From Planomicrobium okeanokoites (GTDB lineage Bacteria; Bacillota; Bacilli; Bacillales_A; Planococcaceae), in contig NZ_QQRS01000002.1 of NCBI RefSeq assembly GCF_003428875.1, positions 186,001-250,000 on the forward strand: a stretch of DNA of 64,000 nt, read 5' to 3'. Made by a program: the position numbers and the translations under genes. The notes under the pieces were generated by a model. The model saw nothing but the letters and a program-made list of their open reading frames with translations. It was not told the origin of the DNA and did no database searches. Below, piece after piece: positions 2,030 to 38,427 of the stretch (the stretch's first letter is position 1; every line of letters starts with the position of its first letter).

Positions 2030-3442
2030 TTATTCTGCTGCCGCAATAGTAATGTATGCCTGTATGACTTCGTCCATTTCATCTTCACGGACCGTCCGGA
2101 AGTCGACACACACTTTTTCATCTTGGATTCTCGCAATGACCGGCGGACGATTTTCTCTGAGACGCTTCGCCAGTTGCTGCGCGGGCATCCCATCATGGCT
2201 GATCGCCGCCAGGTATGTGGGAATTTCGACTTCCGGCATGGTGCCGCCGCCGATTTGAGAAACCCCCGCCAGCAATTCCACACTGTAATCACCGGTGCGT
2301 GATTCCAGTGCTGTGATAAAACTCCCTGCCTGCCGCTTAATGTCATCTGAATCTCGCATAATATCCCGTACTGTCGGAATTTCATTTACGGCATCTCCAC
2401 CAGCCACATAGGCTTTCAGCGTTTCTTCCAATGCAGCGAATGTCATTTTATCGACACGCAGTACACGCGCCAGCTGATGTTTCTTGAGCTTGCCGATCAG
2501 CTCTTTAGTGCCGGCGATGATACCGGCTTGCGGGCCGCCGAGCAATTTATCGCCGCTGAAGCTGACGAGATCCGCTCCTGCAGCAATCACATCCCGTACA
2601 TGAGGTTCGCTTCCGATACCGTGTTTTTGGAAGTCATACAGCGCGCCGCTGCCGAGGTCTTCATAAAACACCAGCTCGTCGTAGCGTTTCTTCAATTCCA
2701 CCAATTCTTCGGTTTCAACCGTTGCTGTAAAGCCCGACATGAAGAAATTGCTGGTATGGACTTTCATGATCATAGCTGTCTCTTCATTAATCGCATCTTC
2801 ATAATCGAATAAATGCGTCTTATTGGTCGTGCCGACTTCACGGAGATGCGCCCCGCTTTCTTCCATAATGGAAGAAACCCGGAACGATCCGCCGATTTCT
2901 ACAAGCTGGCCGCGGGATACAATGACTTCTTTCCGTTTCGCCAATGCGCTTAAAATCATAAACACTGCCGCAGCGTTATTGTTCACGACCATAGCCGCTT
3001 CTGCTCCTGTCGCCTGCTTGATCAGGTCTTCCAGGATGTCATGGCGCGAACCGCGCTTTCCTTCGGCGATCCGATATTCCAGATTGGAGTAGTCGCGCGC
3101 TGCCCGTGTCACTTGTTCCACTGCCCGTTTGCTCAGGCGCGAGCGCCCCAGATTGGTGTGCAGCACCGTGCCGGTCCCATTAATGACACGCATTAGCCGG
3201 TCTTCATTCCATTCAGCTGCTTTTTTCTTGGCGTTGCTGAAAATCAGTTCGCTGAAATTTTCCTCAGCAGGCAATACATCCGATTTTCCCGCAAGCAGAT
3301 TTTCACGCAGCACACCCAATTCCTGCTGGATGTACTTCGTACCCTGTTCGGCAGTCAGCCCGAAAGAAATTAAAAATTCTTCAAAACGCCTGTCTTTCTG
3401 CAATTCATGGACGGGCGGTAATAGGCGCAAATATTGCTTCAT
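2030..3442 (-). CDS. selA: L-seryl-tRNA(Sec) selenium transferase SelA
   Basis: SelA converts Ser-tRNA(Sec) to Sec-tRNA(Sec) with selenophosphate, using PLP. The protein has 470 residues, normal for the bacterial decameric enzyme. The N-terminal tRNA-binding region is followed by the fold-type I aminotransferase core with INGTGTVLHTNLGR and the PLP-lysine motif SGDKLLGGPQ (Lys299, matching Lys295 of E. coli). It is the last gene of a selB - SelW-like - selA minus-strand operon, 30 bp after the small selenoprotein stop. The ATG at 3442 follows GGAGG. With selB, selC and selD all within 6 kb, the host should make selenoproteins. Confidence 0.97.
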   Translation of the reverse strand: MKQYLRLLPPVHELQKDRRFEEFLISFGLTAEQGTKYIQQELGVLRENLLAGKSDVLPAEENFSELIFSNAKKKAAEWNEDRLMRVINGTGTVLHTNLGRSRLSKRAVEQVTRAARDYSNLEYRIAEGKRGSRHDILEDLIKQATGAEAAMVVNNNAAAVFMILSALAKRKEVIVSRGQLVEIGGSFRVSSIMEESGAHLREVGTTNKTHLFDYEDAINEETAMIMKVHTSNFFMSGFTATVETEELVELKKRYDELVFYEDLGSGALYDFQKHGIGSEPHVRDVIAAGADLVSFSGDKLLGGPQAGIIAGTKELIGKLKKHQLARVLRVDKMTFAALEETLKAYVAGGDAVNEIPTVRDIMRDSDDIKRQAGSFITALESRTGDYSVELLAGVSQIGGGTMPEVEIPTYLAAISHDGMPAQQLAKRLRENRPPVIARIQDEKVCVDFRTVREDEMDEVIQAYITIAAAE

Positions 3443-5757: not shown

Positions 5758-5854
5758 GGGGTTGGATGAGTGACTGGTGTCTTCCTGGGTCTTCAAAACC
5801 CTGAGGGACCTGCGTGCCAGGTCCGGTGGGTTCGATTCCCACACGATCCCGCCA
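5758..5854 (+). tRNA. selC: tRNA-Sec (anticodon TCA)
   Basis: A 97-nt tRNA with encoded CCA. The 5' strand GGGGTTG pairs with CGATCCC (two wobbles; the eighth acceptor pair G-A is mismatched). A GTGGG/CCCAC T-stem closes the loop TTCGATT, and the anticodon loop is CTTCAAA with TCA at 5793-5795. A long variable arm (GGGACCT with AGGTCC) is typical of tRNA-Sec. A TATACA at 5730-5735 is a plausible -10. It is transcribed away from selB and ends in its own terminator. Confidence 0.95.
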
Positions 5855-10804: not shown

Positions 10805-11113
10805 TTACGTTAGTGCAAATTCCTTCAACGGTTCTTCCGGCATAAAGCCGACAGAACGTTTTACTTCTTTCCCGTTTTTAACGAGCACTAAAGTCGGGAT
10901 GCTCATAATGCCGAATTGCTCTGCCAACTCTGGAGCATCGTTGACAACTACTTTATAAAAATCTACTGAATCAACCTGTTCAGCTACATTTGAGACCACC
11001 GGCCCCAATTGGGCGCAAGGCCCTCAACCATTCGATCCAAAATTTAGGACTGCCGGTCTTTCATTGTTTCCAACAAAATTTGCATAGTCTTCTGCAGTGA
11101 TTGTTTTAACCAT
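10805..11113 (-). CDS. Thioredoxin with selenocysteine active site (UGPC)
   Basis: Reading a TGA at 11024-11026 as Sec gives a 102-residue thioredoxin. The strand VLNFGSNGU30GPC33AQLGPVV replaces the usual WCGPCK, so the attacking Cys is Sec. The cis-proline loop IMSIPTLVLVKNG and the C-terminal VGFMPEEPLKEF are standard thioredoxin. ATG 11113 has GGAGG seven bases upstream. A GGT-loop SECIS lies 23 nt beyond the TGA. It follows the PhnD-type gene on the same strand by 69 bp, so it may be co-expressed with selenium uptake. Sec-containing thioredoxin-like proteins are known in some bacteria. The partner substrate is unknown. Starting from an internal codon would leave only a fragment without the active site. 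Confidence 0.92.
10990..11008 (-). promoter_or_regulatory. SECIS element of the Sec-thioredoxin
   Basis: On the minus strand an uninterrupted 8-bp stem (TTGGGGCC with GGTCTCAA, two G-U pairs) closes a GGT loop. The loop begins 23 nt after the TGA. Confidence 0.8.
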
Positions 11114-15486: not shown

Positions 15487-15499
15487 TTAAAACATCTCC

Positions 15500-15532
15500 T
15501 TAGTTTTTTTAAGAGGGATTTCGCGAACCTCT
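15500..15532 (-). promoter_or_regulatory. preQ1-I riboswitch upstream of queCDE
   Basis: The minus strand reads AGAGGTTCGCGAAATCCCTC followed by TTAAAAAAACTA, which matches the class I preQ1 consensus: a hairpin with an A-rich tail ending in ACUA. The tail runs directly into the queC AAGGAG site, so control is probably translational. Confidence 0.92.
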
Positions 15533-15743
15533 ATATTTTGAACGTTTTTCATCGTACCACATTCCAGGAAAAGAGCGTCAATATATATTCTCGAATTTTT
15601 ATTGATAAACAAATTTTCTATGCTGATTTTTGAATTTATTACTGCAAAAATAATCTGACCCTTTTAAAAAAACAAATCTGGTCATTTTCATATGGTCAAA
15701 TTCCTTTAAACTGGAGGTATCAAACTTCAAGGAGGAATAATAT

Positions 15744-26464: not shown

Positions 26465-27592
26465 TTAACGAACCGCACAACGGTTTGGCCCGATTTCCAT
26501 TTCACGCTGAACTTCTTCGTCAGGCGTGATTTTACCCATATTTGTTTTGCGGATGTCCTGATAAGCGTTTGGCTGCGGCGGCAGGTTTTTCGTTACCATG
26601 TCGCGGAATTCCTGCTCATCTTCGATATTCAATCCGTGGTTTTCTTTGAAAAGGTCGCCCAATTTTTTCGCGACGCTTCCGTCTTCATTTAACTCATCCA
26701 TGATCATGAAGTGAGCCGGTAAAACGACAAGTTCATCAGCGAGTTCCGCATAGCGGCTGTAAAGCGATTCACGAAGGTCGCCTACCCAGTCTTCAGCAAG
26801 GCCTGCAAGGTCAGGGCGTCCAATGGAATCGATGAACAGGATGTCGCCTGTCATCAAGTATTGGTCGTCAACGATGAATGATGTTGAACCGATTGTATGC
26901 CCCGGTGAGTATAATGCTTCGATTTCAATTTTCGCGTCGCCGATAGCCACTTCCAGTCCATTGACCAATTCCGCATAGTCGAATACCACTTCTTCAGCGT
27001 CAGCCGGCGGCAAGTAATACGTTGCGCCTGTTGCTTCAGCGATCTGGCGTCCTCCGGAAATGTGGTCTGCGTGCAAGTGCGTATCGAATACGTGCTTGAT
27101 CTTAGCACCTTTTTCCTGCGCGAAATCCAAGAAGATATCAGTCATGCGTGTTGCATCGATAATAGCGGCTTCACCGTCTGAGATTGCCATGTAAGAAAGG
27201 CATCCTTTTCCGATGCGTACGAATTGATACAATTCCCCGCCATTTTTCAAATCGCCGACTTTCACTGGTTCCAGGTGTTCACTCCACGCTTTCATGCCGC
27301 CTTCAAGGTACGCCGCGTCGACGCCTTCTTCATCAAGCATTTCCGCAACCATGACAGAAGATCCTTCTTTCGCGCAAACGACAAGAATGTCTCTGTCTTT
27401 CGGAAGTTCTGAAACCACTTCTTCGACACCGTCCAATAAATCAAAATAAGGTGTATTCAGATACTGAATGTTGCCGCCTTCGATTTTCCAGTCGGCGAAA
27501 GCGTCGCCGTTGCGGACATCAAGGATAAATAAAGGCTGATTTTCTATTACTTTGCGTGCTACTTCTTTTGCTGTCATTGCTTTTACAGTCAA
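26465..27592 (-). CDS. Rhodanese-persulfide dioxygenase fusion (CstB/ETHE1-like), copy 1
   Basis: A 375-residue fusion. The N-terminal rhodanese domain (about 1-105) has the active-site Cys in VCAKEGSS. The metallo-beta-lactamase domain carries [36 protein letters not shown] and LPAHF, the iron ligands of ETHE1-type persulfide dioxygenases. It should oxidise persulfides to sulfite and handle thiosulfate, as CstB does in Staphylococcus, although CstB has its rhodanese domain on the other side. The C-terminus ends RCAVR. TTG 27592 is chosen for its GGAGGT seven bases before; ATG 27577 is possible. A second copy is at 30469-31587. Confidence 0.9.
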
Positions 27593-27637
27593 TTTAAATA
27601 CCTCCATCAGTATATTTTTCGTTGTATTTTTAAGAGA

Positions 27638-28033
27638 TTAGAAAGTTAATGTAACGTCTGCGTCTTTTGCGAATTCAAGGAATGTGACTGCTCCACCAAC
27701 ATCAATGCCATCGACGAAAGCATCTTTTTCAAGGCCGAATAAATCCATTGTCATTTGGCAGCCGATGAATTTCACATCAAGTTCCTGCGCCATTTCAACC
27801 AGTTCCGGGATTGCCGGTACATTTCCTTTTGCGAATCCTTCAGCAATTTCTTCCTTGCCTTCAGGCAGCGGCAATTGGCCATATGCTTCTTTATTGATCA
27901 AGTTCAATCCTTCGAATGTAAAGAAGATTGCCACTTCGTGATCACTTGCCGCTGCTGCTGTTGCGATATTGTATACTTTATAAGCATCGAATAATGTTCC
28001 GTTTGATGCGATGATTGCTGTTTTACCTGCCAT
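27638..28033 (-). CDS. DsrE-family sulfur relay protein, copy 1
   Basis: A 131-residue DsrE/DsrF/DrsH-like protein. The fold signature includes the N-terminal strand TAIIASNGTLFDAYKVYNIA, the FFTFEGLNLI segment and the conserved Cys in FIGCQMTMDLFGL. These proteins bind or relay persulfide sulfur, commonly with TusA and rhodaneses, which are its neighbours here. It is cytoplasmic and lies 45 bp upstream of the dioxygenase gene. Compared with the second copy (29404-29883) it lacks the internal insertion. Confidence 0.9.
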   Translation of the reverse strand: MAGKTAIIASNGTLFDAYKVYNIATAAAASDHEVAIFFTFEGLNLINKEAYGQLPLPEGKEEIAEGFAKGNVPAIPELVEMAQELDVKFIGCQMTMDLFGLEKDAFVDGIDVGGAVTFLEFAKDADVTLTF

Positions 28034-28072: not shown

Positions 28073-28642
28073 TTATGCGTTGTTTTGTTCTGTTTCGCCG
28101 TCCCATTGGCTCATGCCTTCTACTGCATTTTTTACGCGTCCAAAGCCTTTGTCCGCCAATTGTTTTGCTGCGAAATCACTTCGGTTGCCTGTGCGGCAAA
28201 TGACGATCACTTCTTTTTCAGCATCCAATTCCGCTGTACGGTTTTCCAGCTCGCCAAGCGGAATGGAAATTGCGCCTTCGATGTGGCCAAATGCGTATTC
28301 AGCAGGTTCACGGACATCAAGTACGACTACATCGTCGCGGCCCATCTGTTCTTTCAATTCAGCGTTTGTCACTGTATGCGGAAATTGCACTTCTTCTTTT
28401 TCTTCTGACTGATCCGCTTTGCGCAAATAATGCTTCAGCACATCGCCTTCTTCGAATGTTCCGAGGTATTGGTTGCCGCTGCTCTTCGCCCAGGCTTTGA
28501 TGTCAGCCAAGGATCCTTTGTCAGTTGCCTGCACTTCAATAACCTGCCCCGGCTCGAGTTCAGTCATCGCTTTCTTCGTGCGTACGATCGGCATTGGGCA
28601 AGCAAGCCCTTTTGCATCCAGTAATTTATCTGTTTGAATCAT
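28073..28642 (-). CDS. cstA: TusA-rhodanese fusion (CstA-like sulfurtransferase)
   Basis: A 189-residue protein. The N-terminal TusA domain (about 1-75) has LDAKGLACPMPIVRTKK, a charged linker of about 20 residues follows, and the C-terminal rhodanese (about 95-185) has active-site VICRTGNRSDFA. Two cysteine-bearing carriers in one chain are the hallmark of CstA, which moves sulfane sulfur in the Staphylococcus cst system, although that protein has one more domain. A CstR-type operator lies 15-30 bp upstream of ATG 28642, so transcription may restart here. Confidence 0.88.
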   Translation of the reverse strand: MIQTDKLLDAKGLACPMPIVRTKKAMTELEPGQVIEVQATDKGSLADIKAWAKSSGNQYLGTFEEGDVLKHYLRKADQSEEKEEVQFPHTVTNAELKEQMGRDDVVVLDVREPAEYAFGHIEGAISIPLGELENRTAELDAEKEVIVICRTGNRSDFAAKQLADKGFGRVKNAVEGMSQWDGETEQNNA

Positions 28643-29017: not shown

Positions 29018-29383
29018 TTAAGCGCGGTAGCTTCCCATGCCGCCTCTTACGTTGATCACATCAGTAAAACCATTTTTGTTCAGGATGGCAGCCGCTTTGC
29101 TGCTTCGCATGCCGCTCTGGCAAATAACATAGGTTTCTTTATTTGCGTCGAGTTCGCTGACCCGTCCAGGCAATTCATTCAATGGAATGTTTTTAAATTC
29201 CTTGATGCGATTGGCTTTGAACTCTCCAGGCGTCCGAACATCGATGAATTGCTTATCTTTCTTCTTCAATTGTGGTTTCAATTCGTCTATGGAAATGGAT
29301 TTTACACCTTTTGCCGGTGACATTGCGCGATAACCGATGAAGACGATTACTGCTCCGATTAAAATGATTAACCAAGTATCCAT
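29018..29383 (-). CDS. Membrane-anchored rhodanese
   Basis: A 121-residue protein. An N-terminal transmembrane helix (about residues 4-20, WLIILIGAVIVFIGY) is followed by a rhodanese domain with active-site VICQSGMRSSKA. The helix should tether the sulfurtransferase to the membrane, the domain probably facing the cytoplasm (positive residues follow the helix). It lies between a DsrE gene and the soluble rhodanese with short gaps, in one operon. Such YqhL-type rhodaneses are common in Bacillus relatives. Confidence 0.9.
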   Translation of the reverse strand: MDTWLIILIGAVIVFIGYRAMSPAKGVKSISIDELKPQLKKKDKQFIDVRTPGEFKANRIKEFKNIPLNELPGRVSELDANKETYVICQSGMRSSKAAAILNKNGFTDVINVRGGMGSYRA

Positions 29384-29403: not shown

Positions 29404-29883
29404 TTAAATGAACAAGTTTACGTTGCCGTCTTCAGCATCCGCCAGATAAGCGGCTACTCCTGCATACGTCACACCGTCGAGCAGTTCTTCCTGTTTCAAT
29501 CCAAGAAGGTCCATTGTCATCGTACATGCTACAAGATTGATATCCTGTTCCTCTGCCATTTCGATCAATTGCGGCATTGTCATTGCGTTATGCTTCTGAA
29601 TGACCTGTTTGATCATTTTCGGGCCCATACCGCCCATATTCATATTGGATAAGCCAAGGTTGTCCGCACCGCGCGGCATCATTTTGGCAAACATTTTTTC
29701 CAGGCGTGTTTTTTTCACTGCTGGCGGATTTTCTTTCCGTAATGCATTCAATCCCCAGAATGTGTGGAAGATCGTCACTTCATGATCATAAGCCGCTGCT
29801 CCGTTTGCAATAATATAAGCAGCCATTGCTTTATCGTAATCTCCACTGAATAATATGATGTTCGTTGTCTTTTTCTGTTCCAA
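29404..29883 (-). CDS. DsrE-family sulfur relay protein, copy 2 (with insertion)
   Basis: A 159-residue DsrE-like protein. It has the N-terminal NIILFSGDYDKAMAAYIIAN and the conserved Cys in VACTMTMDLLGL. The middle carries a Met/Gly-rich stretch (SNMNMGGMGPKMIKQVIQKH) absent from copy 1, as in DsrE2-type proteins. It is the first gene of the main sulfur operon, directly after two CstR-type operators. Its likely role is persulfide relay with the TusA and rhodanese partners. Confidence 0.9.
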   Translation of the reverse strand: MEQKKTTNIILFSGDYDKAMAAYIIANGAAAYDHEVTIFHTFWGLNALRKENPPAVKKTRLEKMFAKMMPRGADNLGLSNMNMGGMGPKMIKQVIQKHNAMTMPQLIEMAEEQDINLVACTMTMDLLGLKQEELLDGVTYAGVAAYLADAEDGNVNLFI

Positions 29884-30038: not shown

Positions 30039-30299
30039 TTATCGGCTTTTCACAAGCAGGCTGACTGCATCTTTTACGAGATTGTCTGTGCTTTCACCGT
30101 TTTCAAGGCTTTCACGCACACATTGTTCCAAGTTTTCGCTGACGATGACCCCGATAGCCCGATCCACTGCACTTCTTACAGCAGACAATTGTGTAACTAC
30201 ATCACGGCAATCGTCATTTTCCTCCACCATGCGAAGCACACCTTTCAGCTGGCCTTCAATCCGCTTTAAGCGATTCTGGACTTGTTTGTCGTATTCCAT
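30039..30299 (-). CDS. cstR: CstR, persulfide-sensing CsoR-family repressor
   Basis: An 86-residue all-helical CsoR-family regulator. The two cysteines fall exactly at positions 31 (NDDCRDV) and 60 (LEQCVRE), the pair that forms di- and trisulfide links in CstR of Staphylococcus aureus. The copper-binding His of CsoR is absent, arguing against copper sensing. It should repress the sulfur genes until polysulfide or persulfide modifies the cysteines. Its own operator lies upstream, and five similar sites lie near other genes between 28.6 and 32.9 kb. Confidence 0.95.
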   Translation of the reverse strand: MEYDKQVQNRLKRIEGQLKGVLRMVEENDDCRDVVTQLSAVRSAVDRAIGVIVSENLEQCVRESLENGESTDNLVKDAVSLLVKSR

Positions 30300-30347: not shown

Positions 30348-30368
30348 TATATACCCCTTAGGGTATAA
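30348..30368. promoter_or_regulatory. CstR-type operator upstream of cstR
   Basis: TATATACCCCTTAGGGTATAA, about 50 bp before cstR, implies autoregulation. Confidence 0.85.
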
Positions 30369-30468: not shown

Positions 30469-31587
30469 TTATACTGCGCAGTTATTCGGACCGGTCTCCA
30501 TTTCCTTCGCTTCTTCAAGCGGCGGATGGATTTTGCCCATATTGGTCTGCCGTATTTCTTCGTAAGCATTCGGCTGATCTTTCAGATCTTCCGTCACCCG
30601 TTTGATAAATTTTTCTTCATCGTTAATCTGCAAGCCTTCATTGTTCTGATACAGGACAGACAATTTTTCGGAAACACTGCCGTCTTCGTTCAATTCGCTG
30701 ACGTCAGCGTAATGGGCCGGGAGCACAAGCAAATCATCCGCTAACTTTTTATAACGGTCATACAGGGTCTGATAAAGATCATCAGCCCAGTCTCCCGCCT
30801 TACCGGCAAGATCCGGACGACCGATGGATTCAACAAACAGAATATCACCCGTCAGCAGGTATTTATTGTCGACAACGAAAGTTGTGCTGCCGATCGTATG
30901 CCCCGGAGAGTATACGGCTTCGATTACCGCACTGCCGACTTCCAGTTTCATGCCGTCGGTTATCGGTTCAAAATCGAAAACGACTTCTTCCGCATCGTCC
31001 GGCGGCAGATAGTAGGTGGCATCCGCTGAATCCGCCAGCTTTTTACCGCCTGAAATATGATCGGCATGCAAATGCGTATCGATTACATGCGTGATTTTCA
31101 GCCCTTTTTCCCGCGCGAATTCTTCATAGGATTCTGTCATGCGGCTGGCATCGACAATGGCGGCCTCTCCGTCAGATTCGATCAAATAAGACAGGCAGCC
31201 TTTGCCCAGGCGCACGAATTGATAAAGCGCACCGCCGGCCACTTCGCCGATTTTGACTGTTTCAAGCTGTTCACTCCAGGCAGCCATACCGCCTTCGATC
31301 GAGTACACATTATCGAAACCATTTTCCTGCAGGAATGCGGCAGCTTTCTGTGAAGTATTCCCTTTCCCGCAAACCGTATACAGTGTCTGATTCTCCGGCA
31401 GTTCTTTCAGGTCGGATGAGTCGGAATTACTCAACTCTTTGAATGGTATATTGATAAATTGAACGTGATCGCCTTCAATTTTCCAGTCTTCCGCTTCCTC
31501 TGGGCTGCGGACATCCAATACATAAATGGGTTCATTGTTAAAAACCTGACGGGCAACTTTCTTGGGTGATACGAATTCTACTGTCAT
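30469..31587 (-). CDS. Rhodanese-persulfide dioxygenase fusion (CstB/ETHE1-like), copy 2
   Basis: A 372-residue paralogue of the 26465-27592 protein with the same order: N-terminal rhodanese with active site VCGKGNTSQ, then the ETHE1-type domain ([41 protein letters not shown]). Its rhodanese loop is closer to the standard CxxGxxS form than copy 1 (CAKEGSS), so the two may differ in sulfur donor. ATG 31587 is chosen, seven bases after AAGGAGG. A separate CstR-type operator lies just upstream, and a hairpin isolates it from cstR. Confidence 0.9.
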   Translation of the reverse strand: MTVEFVSPKKVARQVFNNEPIYVLDVRSPEEAEDWKIEGDHVQFINIPFKELSNSDSSDLKELPENQTLYTVCGKGNTSQKAAAFLQENGFDNVYSIEGGMAAWSEQLETVKIGEVAGGALYQFVRLGKGCLSYLIESDGEAAIVDASRMTESYEEFAREKGLKITHVIDTHLHADHISGGKKLADSADATYYLPPDDAEEVVFDFEPITDGMKLEVGSAVIEAVYSPGHTIGSTTFVVDNKYLLTGDILFVESIGRPDLAGKAGDWADDLYQTLYDRYKKLADDLLVLPAHYADVSELNEDGSVSEKLSVLYQNNEGLQINDEEKFIKRVTEDLKDQPNAYEEIRQTNMGKIHPPLEEAKEMETGPNNCAV

Positions 31588-31616
31588 ATGCATTCCTCCT
31601 TGCCATTTAGCCATTT

Positions 31617-31656: not shown

Positions 31657-32040
31657 TTAAACGGTCTTATCGATGCAGCCGATCAATCTTTTCTCAATAT
31701 CCACTGCGATTTCTTTGATCGAATCATTTTCAACCATCTGGATTAGCGCACTTGGCTTCGGCATGCCGATTTTCGTAGTGCCTTCCTCTTCGTAGACAAC
31801 TATTTTACATGGAAGGAAATAGCCGACCATTAGATCTTCCGACAATACGCGGTTGGCTTCCTGCGGGTTGCAGACTTCAAGTATCGTATAAGGTGTACTG
31901 AAATCAGTTCCTTTTTCCTGAAGCTTTGCCGTCAAATCGAAATTCCAAAGCACCCCGAATTTCTCGTCTTTCAAGTTCGCTTCCAGGTCCCGGACTGCTT
32001 CGTCCTTGCTCTTGCTTGTTTCTACTGTGTAATCAAACAT
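31657..32040 (-). CDS. DUF302-family protein
   Basis: A 127-residue protein of the DUF302 family, with the typical openings YTVETSKSKDEAVRDLEANL and FGVLWNFDLTAKLQEKG and the conserved ILEVCNPQEANRVL and GYFLPCKIVVYEE. Two cysteines lie in those conserved segments. DUF302 proteins occur with sulfur and metal stress genes but lack a settled function. Within this CstR island a role in handling reactive sulfur is a guess. It lies 88 bp downstream of the micro-selenoprotein gene. Confidence 0.88.
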   Translation of the reverse strand: MFDYTVETSKSKDEAVRDLEANLKDEKFGVLWNFDLTAKLQEKGTDFSTPYTILEVCNPQEANRVLSEDLMVGYFLPCKIVVYEEEGTTKIGMPKPSALIQMVENDSIKEIAVDIEKRLIGCIDKTV

Positions 32041-32128: not shown

Positions 32129-32224
32129 TTAATACTGAGTAATAATAAGGAATAACAGAAACGCGATTCCTGCCAGGAACGCAAATTTTTGAGATGGTCA
32201 CAAAGCCGTCCAAAGGTCTTTCAT
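32129..32224 (-). CDS. Candidate 31-residue membrane micro-selenoprotein (U9)
   Basis: An ATG at 32224 stands five bases after AAAGGAG and opens a frame that meets TGA at 32198-32200, then continues to TAA at 32129-32131. Read as Sec, the N-terminus is MKDLWTALUPSQK, followed by one strongly hydrophobic span (about residues 14-28) and a short polar end. A hairpin of SECIS type lies 23 nt past the TGA. It is 14 bp downstream of the methyltransferase and upstream of DUF302, in a CstR-operator unit. I know no family with this sequence. The strong ribosome site, the membrane helix encoded only after the TGA and the SECIS argue for a real gene. Orientation is probably N-inside. Confidence 0.75.
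32163..32182 (-). promoter_or_regulatory. SECIS element of the micro-selenoprotein
   Basis: On the minus strand GCG-TTCCT pairs with AGGAA-(T)-CGC, eight base pairs with one bulged T, closing a GGC loop. The loop begins 23 nt after the TGA at 32198-32200 and starts with G, matching the other SECIS hairpins in this window. Confidence 0.72.
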
Positions 32225-32238
32225 ATGGGCTCCTTTCG

Positions 32239-32808
32239 TCATGCAAGTTTCGCGATGATGCCGTAATTTTTTTCATTCAACTGAATAATATCTTGAGTAA
32301 AACCATTTTCTTTAAGAAGATCCGCCATATCCGCTGAAGGAATTTTATCTTCGAGCGGCGGCCCGATTTCTGTCTCGACCGCTTCCCACTCGATTAAAAG
32401 CAATGTCCCGTCCGGCTTCAGAATTCTCTTGATCTCCTTAAGAGCTTTTGCGGGATCCGGCACTTCATGGATGACGAATGCGGCCATCACTTTGTCCACG
32501 GAACGATCTTTTAATCGGATACTTTCCAAATCGCTTTCGATATAGCGGATATTGGCCAATCCACCTTTTTCAGCCAGCTCCTGCAGCAGCGCCAGCATCT
32601 TCGGTTCAATGTCCACCGCGTAAACCTGATTCTTCGTCTTTGACGCCAACGGTAAAGTGAAATATCCGTTTCCGGCACCTAAATCCGCGATTTCTTCATC
32701 ACCATTCAACTTCAAATGCGCAAGAATACTTTCAGGCGGCAATAAAGCCTTCCGTTCCTCACTGTACAGTACAGCCGCTTGTTCAGGATTAAATCTTTTT
32801 TCCACCAT
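32239..32808 (-). CDS. Class I SAM-dependent methyltransferase
   Basis: A 189-residue methyltransferase with SAM motif I IADLGAGNGYF, the acidic loop VYAVDIEPKML, motif III-like VDKVMAAFVIHEV and LKPDGTLLLIEW. The family includes small-molecule methyltransferases of the UbiE/arsenite type. First in a unit with the micro-selenoprotein and DUF302, under a CstR-type operator, it might methylate sulfide, selenide or another chalcogen compound, but the substrate cannot be read from sequence. ATG 32808 (or the preceding ATG-rich context) follows GGAGG. Confidence 0.85.
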   Translation of the reverse strand: MVEKRFNPEQAAVLYSEERKALLPPESILAHLKLNGDEEIADLGAGNGYFTLPLASKTKNQVYAVDIEPKMLALLQELAEKGGLANIRYIESDLESIRLKDRSVDKVMAAFVIHEVPDPAKALKEIKRILKPDGTLLLIEWEAVETEIGPPLEDKIPSADMADLLKENGFTQDIIQLNEKNYGIIAKLA

Positions 32809-32837: not shown

Positions 32838-32858
32838 TATATACCCCTGCGGGTATCT
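32838..32858. promoter_or_regulatory. CstR-type operator between methyltransferase and Sec thioredoxin-like gene
   Basis: TATATACCCCTGCGGGTATCT, 30 bp before the methyltransferase and 144 bp before the divergent selenoprotein gene. It probably controls the former and could affect the latter. Confidence 0.8.
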
Positions 32859-33001: not shown

Positions 33002-33337
33002 ATGAAGGAACTCATTTCAATGGAAGAAGTAACGTCGTTCAGCGAAAAGCCGGGATTGCAGTTTCTCTACGTTTTAACGACGAGTTGAAGCGTATGCCAT
33101 GGTTTACTTCCTCAGGTCGAGGAAGCGATGAATGATTTTCCGCGTATTCAAACCAGCGTTGCCAATGCGGAGGAAATCCCCGAGATTGCCGGTCATTTCT
33201 CCATTTTCACAGTGCCGGTCCTTATTTTATTCGCGGACGGAAAAGAGATGCTGCGAGAGGCAAGGTTTGTCCATGTAGAAGAGTTTAAAATGAAAGTCAG
33301 TAAAATATATGAAGGCTTCTATTCTTCAGACCAATGA
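33002..33337 (+). CDS. Thioredoxin-like selenoprotein with USVC active site
   Basis: Read through TGA 33086-33088, the gene gives 111 residues. After a first strand (LQFLYVLTTS) the active site is U29SVC32 in SUSVCHGLLPQVEEA, matching thioredoxin-family proteins that carry CSVCH at this site. The cis-Pro motif is FTVPVLILFADGKEM. There is no signal peptide, so it is cytoplasmic. ATG 33002 follows AGGAG by nine bases. A perfect 7-bp SECIS lies 25 nt past the TGA. It is divergent from the CstR-controlled methyltransferase unit and is followed by its own terminator. Conventional calling keeps only an internal fragment from 33128. Confidence 0.92.
33107..33125 (+). promoter_or_regulatory. SECIS element of the USVC protein
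   Basis: CTTCCTC pairs perfectly with GAGGAAG around loop AGGTC. The loop begins 25 nt after the TGA and has G at its second base. Confidence 0.85.
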
Positions 33338-36968: not shown

Positions 36969-37868
36969 CTATATCCCCGCGCTCAGCACTACTTCGCCCT
37001 GCGGCAATTCATTGCCGGCTTGCGGTTCCAAGGTGATCGCGATGGTATCCCATTCTTCGGTGCTATTGTCGATATTGAAATACGTTGCGCCTTCGCCGTC
37101 TGCGTTCGTCGTGAATGCGCCGGCTGGAATCGGGTTGTCGCCTTCGATGAGCCAGACCTGGTAGACCTGGTCGCCTTCAAGTGCGGCAAGCTGTTCTGCT
37201 GTCACAACCAGATTGAGCGCCCCGTTTTCTTCTTCAATAACGGCGGCAGTTGCGTCGCCGCCAAAGCCTTCGCTTGGCTGCAAGTCAACTGACTGGAAGG
37301 CTGTCTCCGGCGGAGTTGGTGCCGGTTCCGGCGCCGCCTGCTCAGGCTCTTCCTGCAATTGCATGTATGCAAACACGTTGCCAAGCAATGAAACCAGCAG
37401 AACTGCCGCAATCAGCGGCGTCACCCAATTCCGTTTGCGGCCACGGCCGGTCATCGGCACCACATTCGTCCGTTCATCATTGCGCGGCTTTCGATCTGAT
37501 GTTTCAGACTCAGCGTGTGAAGCACTTGATGCCCGGTTGCCGACAGCAGCTCCTGCAGCGGCGGACGATGCAGATGAAGCACTCGACGCCGAATGTGAAC
37601 TCCGGTTTTCCGGCTCGCCATCAATTGTTCCACTGTCTGCTGGATCAGCACTTTCACTTTCTTCTGCGAAAACATTCGACAGGATCCGTGATTTCATTCC
37701 CGCAGGTGGTTCTGCAGGGTCTGAAAGATAAGGGAGCTGCCCGGTTGCGTCCGCGATTTCGCGGCATTCGTCGCATGTCTTCAGGTGTTCTTCGAATTGG
37801 CGGTTTTCTTCGGCGGATAATGTGCCGTTCAGATAGTCGACCAATTGATCACAATGTTCGTTATTCAT
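36969..37868 (-). CDS. Anti-sigma factor with zinc-finger and RskA-type domain
   Basis: A 299-residue single-span membrane protein. The N-terminus has the anti-sigma zinc motif HCDQLVDYLNG...HLKTCDEC (HxxxCxxC). It is followed by a long low-complexity Ser/Ala/Glu region (residues 75-145), a transmembrane helix near 150-170, and an extracytoplasmic RskA-like beta domain (VYQVWLIEGDNPIPAGAF). It should hold the ECF sigma factor encoded immediately upstream until cleaved. The start overlaps the sigma stop by 8 bp. The neighbouring divergent surface protein/sortase pair is a plausible target. Confidence 0.9.
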   Translation of the reverse strand: MNNEHCDQLVDYLNGTLSAEENRQFEEHLKTCDECREIADATGQLPYLSDPAEPPAGMKSRILSNVFAEESESADPADSGTIDGEPENRSSHSASSASSASSAAAGAAVGNRASSASHAESETSDRKPRNDERTNVVPMTGRGRKRNWVTPLIAAVLLVSLLGNVFAYMQLQEEPEQAAPEPAPTPPETAFQSVDLQPSEGFGGDATAAVIEEENGALNLVVTAEQLAALEGDQVYQVWLIEGDNPIPAGAFTTNADGEGATYFNIDNSTEEWDTIAITLEPQAGNELPQGEVVLSAGI

Positions 37869-38427
37869 CGATAGCCCCCCTTTCCTGCATCCCGTGCAGT
37901 GTTTTCTTTAGCTTGCTGAGCGCCAGCCGGATCCTGCTCTTGACGGTTCCGAGCGGTATCCCGCATAATTCGGCGATTTTTTCGTGTGTATGGCCTTTAA
38001 AGTAAAACAACTGGATCATCTCCTGCTGTTCAGCTGATAACTGCGAAACCGCAGCCTGGATATGTTCTTTTTCTTCCTGCCATTCAGCCGTCTGCTCGAC
38101 ACTGGATTCGCCGCTCGGCATTTCAGCGACTTCATCCAGCGGCACAGTCGCCTTCTTCCGTTTCCGGATCAGGTCGATCGCGGAATTCTGCGCCATCCGG
38201 AACAGCCAGGAAGTGAACTTCCCTTTGCTGTCGTCGTATTCGCCGACGCCCCGCCAGATTTTGATGAACACTTCCTGCAGGGCTTCCTCCGCCAAGTCGC
38301 GGTCCTGGGTCATTTTTAAGAGAAACGAGAATAGGATCTTTTCGTACCGGTCGTACAAATATTCCAGCGCATCTTTGTCTTTCTCACGGATGCGCGAGTA
38401 AAGCAGCGTATCGGAACTTTTCTCCAT
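37861..38427 (-). CDS. ECF RNA polymerase sigma factor (SigK-like group)
   Basis: A 188-residue ECF sigma factor. Region 2 includes ALEYLYDRYEKILFSFLLKM and KFTSWLFRMAQNSAIDLIRK, and region 4 holds LSAEQQEMIQLFYFKGHTHEKIAE with the helix-turn-helix GIPLGTVKSRIRLALSKL. It is co-translated with the RskA-type anti-sigma gene, the usual cognate pairing. ATG 38427 follows GGAGA. Its target promoters cannot be named from this window; the divergent sortase locus is the first candidate. Confidence 0.93.
   Translation of the reverse strand: MEKSSDTLLYSRIREKDKDALEYLYDRYEKILFSFLLKMTQDRDLAEEALQEVFIKIWRGVGEYDDSKGKFTSWLFRMAQNSAIDLIRKRKKATVPLDEVAEMPSGESSVEQTAEWQEEKEHIQAAVSQLSAEQQEMIQLFYFKGHTHEKIAELCGIPLGTVKSRIRLALSKLKKTLHGMQERGAIDE

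What the first reader, a model, noticed from the sequence alone, without database searches (positions are those of the whole stretch)
32129..32224. A 31-residue membrane micro-selenoprotein hidden in the CstR sulfur island
Seen: AAAGGAG, then ATG, eight sense codons, TGA, then 22 more codons encoding one hydrophobic span, then TAA. An 8-bp hairpin with a GGC loop sits 23 nt after the TGA. The same window has four well-supported Sec genes with the same geometry. Known: bacterial SECIS rules (loop 16-37 nt after UGA, G in the loop). Inferred: Sec9 just before the membrane, in UPSQK, could be a membrane-surface selenol working with the adjacent methyltransferase and DUF302 protein. I know no family with this sequence. 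It is too short for standard annotation.
Basis: partly seen in the sequence, partly recalled or inferred. Interest (0 to 1): 0.93.

Follow-up and report, generated by a model that had tools for sequence, protein, structure and literature searches.

The report
Tiny membrane selenoprotein in sulfur operon
A 31-codon bacterial gene with a UGA codon inside it, conserved together with its RNA hairpin in 25 other genomes, likely makes a tiny membrane-anchored selenoprotein that is predicted to handle reactive sulfur and that the protein catalogues searched do not hold.

Summary
On the minus strand (32224-32129) lies MKDLWTALUPSQKFAFLAGIAFLLFLIITQY*, with UGA as codon 9. Six-frame searches found 29 copies (own included) with UGA at this codon, in seven families of the class; 26 have an intact frame. 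All six core pairs of the hairpin form in 29 of 29, one pair switching between U-A and C-G. 25 of 29 genomes carry selA, one more a tRNA-Sec; of the three without, two have damaged copies. The decisive find is a Cys form (G813): TGC for TGA, hairpin destroyed, no selA match, same slot between the persulfide-dioxygenase-like gene and TauE as in its Sec relatives. 22 of 29 loci lie near CstR/rhodanese/DsrE/DUF302-type sulfur genes (controls 0 of 20); 10 of 29 have a CsoR/CstR-type operator ahead of the gene or its operon. No Pfam or NCBIfam match above cut-off, no database relative, no fit in a 2026 table of 119 families. Best reading: a micro-selenoprotein, likely N-in, whose Sec caps the membrane helix and handles sulfane sulfur. 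Translation, topology and chemistry are untested; the gene is an accessory, and the link to the methyltransferase is weak (10 of 29).

The parts
32129..32224 (-). Micro-selenoprotein reading frame, 31 residues, Sec at residue 9, one hydrophobic span
32198..32200 (-). UGA codon 9, read as Sec
   Evidence: UGA at this codon in 29 Sec-form loci; TGC in G813
32163..32182 (-). Bacterial SECIS-type hairpin inside the frame, loop GGC 23 nt after UGA
   Evidence: six-pair core standard in 29 of 29 loci; pair count on 25 rows; fold
32230..32236 (-). Ribosome-binding site AAAGGAG
   Evidence: sequence
32239..32808 (-). SAM methyltransferase directly upstream (Methyltransf_11)
32841..32856 (+). CsoR/CstR-type operator ATACCC-N4-GGGTAT ahead of methyltransferase and micro-selenoprotein
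31657..32040 (-). DUF302 protein, next gene downstream
30469..31614 (-). MBL-fold plus rhodanese protein (persulfide-dioxygenase-like)
   Evidence: Pfam; NCBIfam matches below cut-off
30351..30366 (+). CsoR/CstR-type operator ahead of the cstR-like gene
30039..30299 (-). CsoR-family repressor, CstR-like by context
   Evidence: NCBIfam CsoR-family matches below cut-off; its tblastn match in G523 is a Pfam Trns_repr_metal protein
29404..29883 (-). DsrE-family sulfur carrier (DrsE_2)
29018..29383 (-). Rhodanese with N-terminal hydrophobic span
   Evidence: NCBIfam matches below cut-off; span by eye
28073..28642 (-). TusA-rhodanese fusion
   Evidence: NCBIfam matches below cut-off
27638..28033 (-). 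DsrE-like protein
   Evidence: NCBIfam match below cut-off
26465..27607 (-). Second MBL-fold plus rhodanese protein
   Evidence: NCBIfam matches below cut-off
2057..3427 (-). selA, Sec synthase
5758..5850 (+). tRNA-Sec

Best explanation
Window 32224-32129 (minus strand) holds a 31-codon frame with UGA as codon 9, conserved with its hairpin in 25 other genomes with an intact frame, that likely makes a single-pass membrane selenoprotein predicted to handle sulfane sulfur (persulfide) at the inner membrane face. Shown by sequence: conserved UGA, SECIS-type hairpin with a pair that changes on both sides, Sec machinery in 26 of 29 host genomes, a Cys form in the same gene slot of a genome without a selA match, and residence near CstR-type sulfur genes in 22 of 29 loci with a matching operator ahead of it in 10 of 29. 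Inferred: it is translated; it inserts with its short N-terminus in the cytoplasm; Sec9 sits at the N-cap of the membrane helix, which would lower its pKa; the selenolate takes sulfur from persulfides or polysulfides (perhaps from sulfide:quinone reductase) as a selenyl-sulfide and passes it to rhodanese, TusA/DsrE carriers or the MBL-fold dioxygenase, being reset by cellular thiols.
For: Conservation: 12 of 261 family genomes, 20 of 398 class genomes, 12 of 80 selA-positive genomes and 9 of 41 genomes of G460's family carry the UGA form; the sets overlap and together give 29 loci. SECIS: six pairs standard in 29 of 29; pair codon 16/codon 20 is U-A in 13, C-G in 13, U-G in 3 (25 loci); on 25 rows 100% of cells pair, no shuffle of 500 as high, slid versions 33-68%. 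Sec use: class sample, selA in 16 of 20 carriers against 70 of 378 others, p 1.6e-8 (the others include G523, a carrier this model missed); family, 9 of 12 against 18 of 249, p 6.3e-8; G460's family, 8 of 9 against 5 of 32. Cys switch: G813 has Cys, four of six hairpin pairs broken, no selA match, and the gene order of G460 and G531. Context: 22 of 29 loci, against 0 of 20 control regions from 20 of these genomes. Operators: within 70 nt upstream in 6 of 29, ahead of the methyltransferase-micro pair in 4 more, 0 in 320 kb of control. Model: long helix from Pro10, mean pLDDT 75, made on the G515 homologue with Cys for Sec. A FliF protein shows a like N-terminal anchor with Ser at the Sec place.
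Against: No protein or selenium data. Seven of 29 loci have none of the island genes nearby (G074, G398, G515, G562, G814, G815, G816), though G074, on a 4.8-kb contig, has a quinone-reductase-like gene 39 nt upstream and G562 an operator at -49. 19 of 29 lack the operator ahead of the gene; of these G531 and G460 have a poor match at -251 inside the upstream gene. Six genomes of the genus with DUF302 82-94% identical lack a Sec or Cys micro-frame upstream of it, four of them selA-positive, and G088, selA-positive, has a frameshifted copy: the gene is an accessory. G012 keeps an intact frame without selA or an above-cut-off tRNA-Sec. Codon 1 is not ATG in several loci; for G815 no usual start is apparent. 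Two of five measures (pairs changed on both sides, further pair types) do not exceed the shuffles; only one pair changes on both sides. Folding energies are ordinary, and in 2 of 7 loci folded (G074, G523) the best fold does not hold the stem. The Cys form has lost L17 and G19, and G813 is listed with contamination 10. Genomes are related, so p-values overstate independence.
Confidence: 0.62

Rival explanations
1. It is a selenium-sensing leader peptide: completing or ending translation at the UGA controls the downstream gene, and the peptide itself does nothing.
For: Short frame ahead of DUF302, TauE or other genes; the hairpin is inside the frame.
Against: The downstream gene differs (DUF302, TauE, CstR, methyltransferase or unrelated); W5 and the hydrophobic span are conserved and the span continues past the hairpin; the Cys form keeps the span without UGA or hairpin.
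Confidence: 0.1
2. It is a small subunit that docks a soluble or membrane partner (DUF302, TauE or a quinone-linked reductase) and lends it a Sec for a redox step such as persulfide or peroxide reduction, rather than carrying sulfur itself.
For: DUF302 near in 18 of 29, TauE in 8 of 29; quinone-reductase-like gene adjacent in G074 (the NCBIfam matches below cut-off); tiny membrane subunits of larger enzymes are common (recalled).
Against: No partner is constant over all loci; seven loci have none of these island genes.
Confidence: 0.22
3. It serves selenium rather than sulfur: a membrane perselenide or selenite handler that feeds or protects the Sec pathway.
For: selA and tRNA-Sec lie about 26-29 kb from it in this window; the TusA-rhodanese protein has a weak match to the selenium protein YedF, below cut-off.
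Against: The Cys form stands in a genome without a selA match; operators are of the sulfur-island type; 68 of 80 selA-positive genomes show no copy.
Confidence: 0.07
4. Chance open frame or decayed remnant.
For: Three of 29 copies are damaged (G088, G015, G228).
Against: Conservation, pairing, Cys switch and Sec-genome link.
Confidence: 0.01

Closest known systems
CstR-regulated persulfide islands: S. aureus cst operon (passages of PMC5480029) and B. licheniformis yrkD-yrkJ-nreBC-sqr-pdo (abstract and passages of PMC9918477)
   Same: CsoR/CstR-family repressor, DsrE, TusA, rhodanese, MBL-fold dioxygenase-like and TauE genes
   Different: The passages seen name no membrane micro-protein and no selenoprotein there; 'DUF302' and 'small membrane' do not occur in the main text of PMC9918477, and the 15 papers listed of 54 hold no 'DUF302'
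Known prokaryotic selenoprotein families (119 families and subfamilies, Table 1 of PMC13188914, section 7 parts 1 and 2 read)
   Same: UGA plus bacterial SECIS; some act in sulfur metabolism (rhodanese, DsrE-like, type III SQR)
   Different: By name and motif none fits a 31-43-residue single-span protein with LUPSQ (the table was compared by eye, not by sequence); no NCBIfam model matches above cut-off
VhuU of methanogens, a very small selenium-bearing hydrogenase subunit; eukaryotic selenoproteins K and S, single-span membrane selenoproteins (recalled; VhuU is also named in the table)
   Same: Very small size (VhuU) or one membrane span with a Sec (K, S)
   Different: VhuU is a hydrogenase subunit; K and S are eukaryotic and longer; no sequence comparison was made here
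FliF flagellar M-ring N-terminal anchor
   Same: W-x2-L-x-P-x-x-[KR] then a membrane span (L168)
   Different: FliF is about 500 residues, has Ser at the Sec place, and no family match links the two

Membership tests
Bacterial selenoprotein | In-frame UGA conserved between relatives with coding beyond it | tested here: met
   29 loci with UGA at codon 9; 26 intact
Bacterial selenoprotein | SECIS hairpin with G in the loop, 16-37 nt after UGA (rule as in PMC13188914) | tested here: met
   Loop 23 nt after UGA, first loop base G in 25 of 25; core pairs in 29 of 29
Bacterial selenoprotein | Sec machinery in the host genome | tested here: met
   selA in 25 of 29, tRNA-Sec in one more (G531); neither above cut-off in G012, G015, G228
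Bacterial selenoprotein | Cys homologue aligned at Sec | tested here: met
   One: G813; none in the protein database
Bacterial selenoprotein | Selenium found in the protein | not testable with these tools
   needs 75Se or mass spectrometry
Member of the CstR (persulfide) regulon | CsoR/CstR-type operator ahead of the gene or its operon | tested here: met
   Met for this window (-630) and 9 more of 29 loci; 19 of 29 have none or only a poor match there; 9 operators in the window at up to 2 mismatches, 1.08 expected
Member of the CstR (persulfide) regulon | Binding of CstR and induction by sulfane sulfur | not testable with these tools
   needs binding and expression assays
Any Pfam or NCBIfam family | Profile match above cut-off | tested here: not met
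   Pfam none; NCBIfam only PID_CTERM at 16.1 and 14.9 bits, cut-off 26, for two of four members

The most novel reading that the evidence does not exclude
A first known class of membrane micro-selenoproteins: a 31-43-residue peptide that is little more than one selenol capping a membrane helix, switched on by persulfide stress, which relays sulfane sulfur between the quinone-linked sulfide oxidation at the membrane and the soluble rhodanese/dioxygenase chain, and which stays hidden because it is very short and is cut at UGA by gene callers.
Probability: 0.4. Interest if true: 0.93.

Novelty: new variant of a known kind. Interest (0 to 1): 0.86.

Why it matters
Selenoprotein discovery leans on Cys homologues and annotated proteins (as PMC12013277 says of SECIS-independent methods, passage); this family has one Cys form found here and about 31-43 residues, so both filters would miss it. 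It would add a single-span membrane protein to the bacterial selenoproteome, give a selenol to persulfide handling in this class, and suggest that other micro-selenoproteins await a search built on six-frame models and SECIS pairing. A UGA-to-TGC switch in a fixed gene slot also gives a natural experiment on what selenium adds.

Tried and rejected
tblastn in plasmids and phages: no match. Protein database: no relative at E <= 1 with two alignments, 1319 and 50 candidates scored; proteins this short may not be held. Phylum sample of 199 genomes: 9 match, G000 and G012 with the motif; of the other seven I read four: G652 and G628 lie in another frame of a longer open frame, G809 is FliF, G685 is an open frame with Pro at the Sec place; G632, G748 and G643 were not read. 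G250 is chance: Ile at the Sec place. One search printed some loci on the wrong strand; one search replaces it. Folding energy was not used as support. The SQR-like gene beside the G074 copy is below NCBIfam cut-offs. Literature searches showed no report of this protein in their listings; only open-access papers are held. NCBIfam scan of eight neighbours gave nothing useful.

Full report
What is there. The frame is on the minus strand, 32224-32129: MKDLWTALUPSQKFAFLAGIAFLLFLIITQY*, UGA at codon 9, with AAAGGAG upstream. It follows a SAM methyltransferase gene and precedes DUF302, an MBL-fold-rhodanese gene and a CsoR-family (CstR-like) repressor gene. The window holds selA and tRNA-Sec.

Conservation. 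With the 31-residue query, 13 of 261 genomes of the own family match at E <= 0.1; 12 have exactly one TGA and it aligns at the Sec place, the thirteenth (G250) is chance. With a nine-row alignment, 20 of 398 genomes of the class match with one TGA at E <= 0.0024, 12 of them outside the own family. With a twenty-row alignment, 12 of 80 selA-positive genomes match with one TGA, G523 being new; four further genomes had only weak matches without TGA. In the family of G460, 9 of 41 genomes carry the UGA form, four new, and one the Cys form. In all 29 Sec-form loci from seven families. Three are damaged: G088 and G015 are frameshifted (before the UGA; within the span), G228 has lost its start region. 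In the 22 intact loci of the first 25, U9, L17 and G19 are constant, W5 and P10 occur in 21 of 22; G814 and G816 have Ile for P10.

RNA. The six-pair stem over codons 15-20 forms in 29 of 29 loci (25, 29). Pair codon 16/codon 20 is U-A 13, C-G 13, U-G 3; the amino acids change in step, Phe..Ile against Leu..Val/Ala in most. On the 25-row alignment no shuffle of 500 reached the observed pairing, cells changed on both sides or covariation score, but the number of pairs changed on both sides (one) and of further pair types did not exceed the shuffles; partners slid by 1-3 columns pair in 33-68% of cells. Shared ancestry may account for much of the switch. Folding energies are ordinary (z from -1.71 to 0.91), and the stem is in the best fold of 5 of 7 loci folded.

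Sec and Cys. selA passes the cut-off in 27 of 261 family genomes, 86 of 398 class genomes and 13 of 41 genomes of G460's family. Among the 29 carriers it is present in 25; G531 lacks a selA match but has a tRNA-Sec of 62 bits near a contig end. G012, G015 and G228 have neither above cut-off; two of these three are damaged, G012 is intact. G813, without a selA match (listed 99% complete, contamination 10), has Cys (TGC) at the place, no standard pair in four of six hairpin positions, and the order rhodanese, DsrE, TusA-rhodanese, MBL-rhodanese, micro-gene, TauE, rhodanese, CstR, DUF302, methyltransferase, the order of G460 and G531. That is the classic Sec-to-Cys exchange and the strongest single piece of evidence.

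Context. With island proteins as tblastn queries on up to 16 kb around each locus, 22 of 29 loci have CstR, MBL-rhodanese, rhodanese, TusA, DsrE, DUF302 or TauE genes nearby (21 of 25; 1 of 4, G817, rhodaneses only); 20 control regions from 20 of the genomes gave none. CstR-like 19, DUF302 18, MBL-rhodanese 17, methyltransferase 10 and TauE 8 of 29. G074's contig is only 4.8 kb; a Pyr_redox_2, sulfide:quinone-reductase-like gene ends 39 nt before its copy.

Regulation. ATACCC-N4-GGGTAT fits the published CsoR type 2 consensus ATATACCCCTNAGGGGTATAT (passage of PMC3902906). It stands 34-69 nt before the micro-gene in G117, G085, G091, G082, G349 and G562 and 623-642 nt before it, ahead of the methyltransferase, in G000, G107, G088 and G112. 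The other 15 of 25 loci and G814-G817 lack one there, apart from a poor match at -251 inside the upstream gene of G531 and G460; G499, G531, G460 and the Cys form G813 have one at about +128, between the micro-gene and TauE. Controls 0 in 320,019 bases. In the window, 9 matches at up to two mismatches against 1.08 expected. That CstR itself binds is inferred.

Accessory nature. Of 46 genomes of the genus 39 have DUF302 at E <= 1e-20. I aligned the upstream stretch of 13 of them; in six whose DUF302 is 82-94% identical (G081, G098, G099, G100, G101, G116) it holds no Sec or Cys micro-frame. The gene is a cassette, not a fixed part.

Fold and mechanism. The AlphaFold2 model of the G515 homologue (Cys for Sec) has a short helix 3-6 and a long one 10-42, mean pLDDT 75, pTM 0.40; hydropathy of codons 14-28 averages 2.48 over 22 loci. 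The stretch resembles the N-terminal anchor of a FliF protein, whose N-terminus faces the cytoplasm (recalled), so an N-in topology with Sec at the helix N-cap is likely. A selenolate there would be more acidic and nucleophilic than a thiol (recalled chemistry). Combined with the regulon, I infer sulfane-sulfur handling. Direct carrier and docked redox subunit cannot be told apart here.

Known or not. Pfam gives no family and NCBIfam none above cut-off; the protein database no relative; the 119-family table of PMC13188914 (section 7 parts 1-2 read) none by name or motif; PMC12013277 and PMC5322559 were seen in passages only. Searches for prior reports were made, of which I saw listings. It is a new family of a known kind, selenoproteins, with an architecture I did not find in those searches.

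Noticed in passing
33002-33337 +: Thioredoxin-like selenoprotein with USVC motif (PF00085, 25.7 bits), on the other strand beyond the methyltransferase gene.
   Followed up: partly
10805-11113 -: Thioredoxin selenoprotein with GUGPC motif (PF00085, 70 bits).
   Followed up: partly
L176 (G813), 1501-1605 +: Cys form of the micro-protein carries a second Cys two residues earlier (SCLCP), a CxC motif not seen in the Sec forms read.
   Followed up: no
L111 (G562), 49 nt before the micro-gene: A copy with no island genes nearby still has a CsoR/CstR-type operator, suggesting a lone regulon member.
   Followed up: partly
36969-38427 - and L105/L106: ECF sigma and RskA-type anti-sigma genes lie about 5-6 kb upstream of the micro-gene here and about 2 kb upstream in G570 and G602 of another family.
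   Followed up: no
15494-15537 -: PreQ1 riboswitch.
   Followed up: no
L095, L093, L100: Damaged copies: G015 and G228 in genomes without selA above cut-off, G088 in a selA-positive genome.
   Followed up: partly
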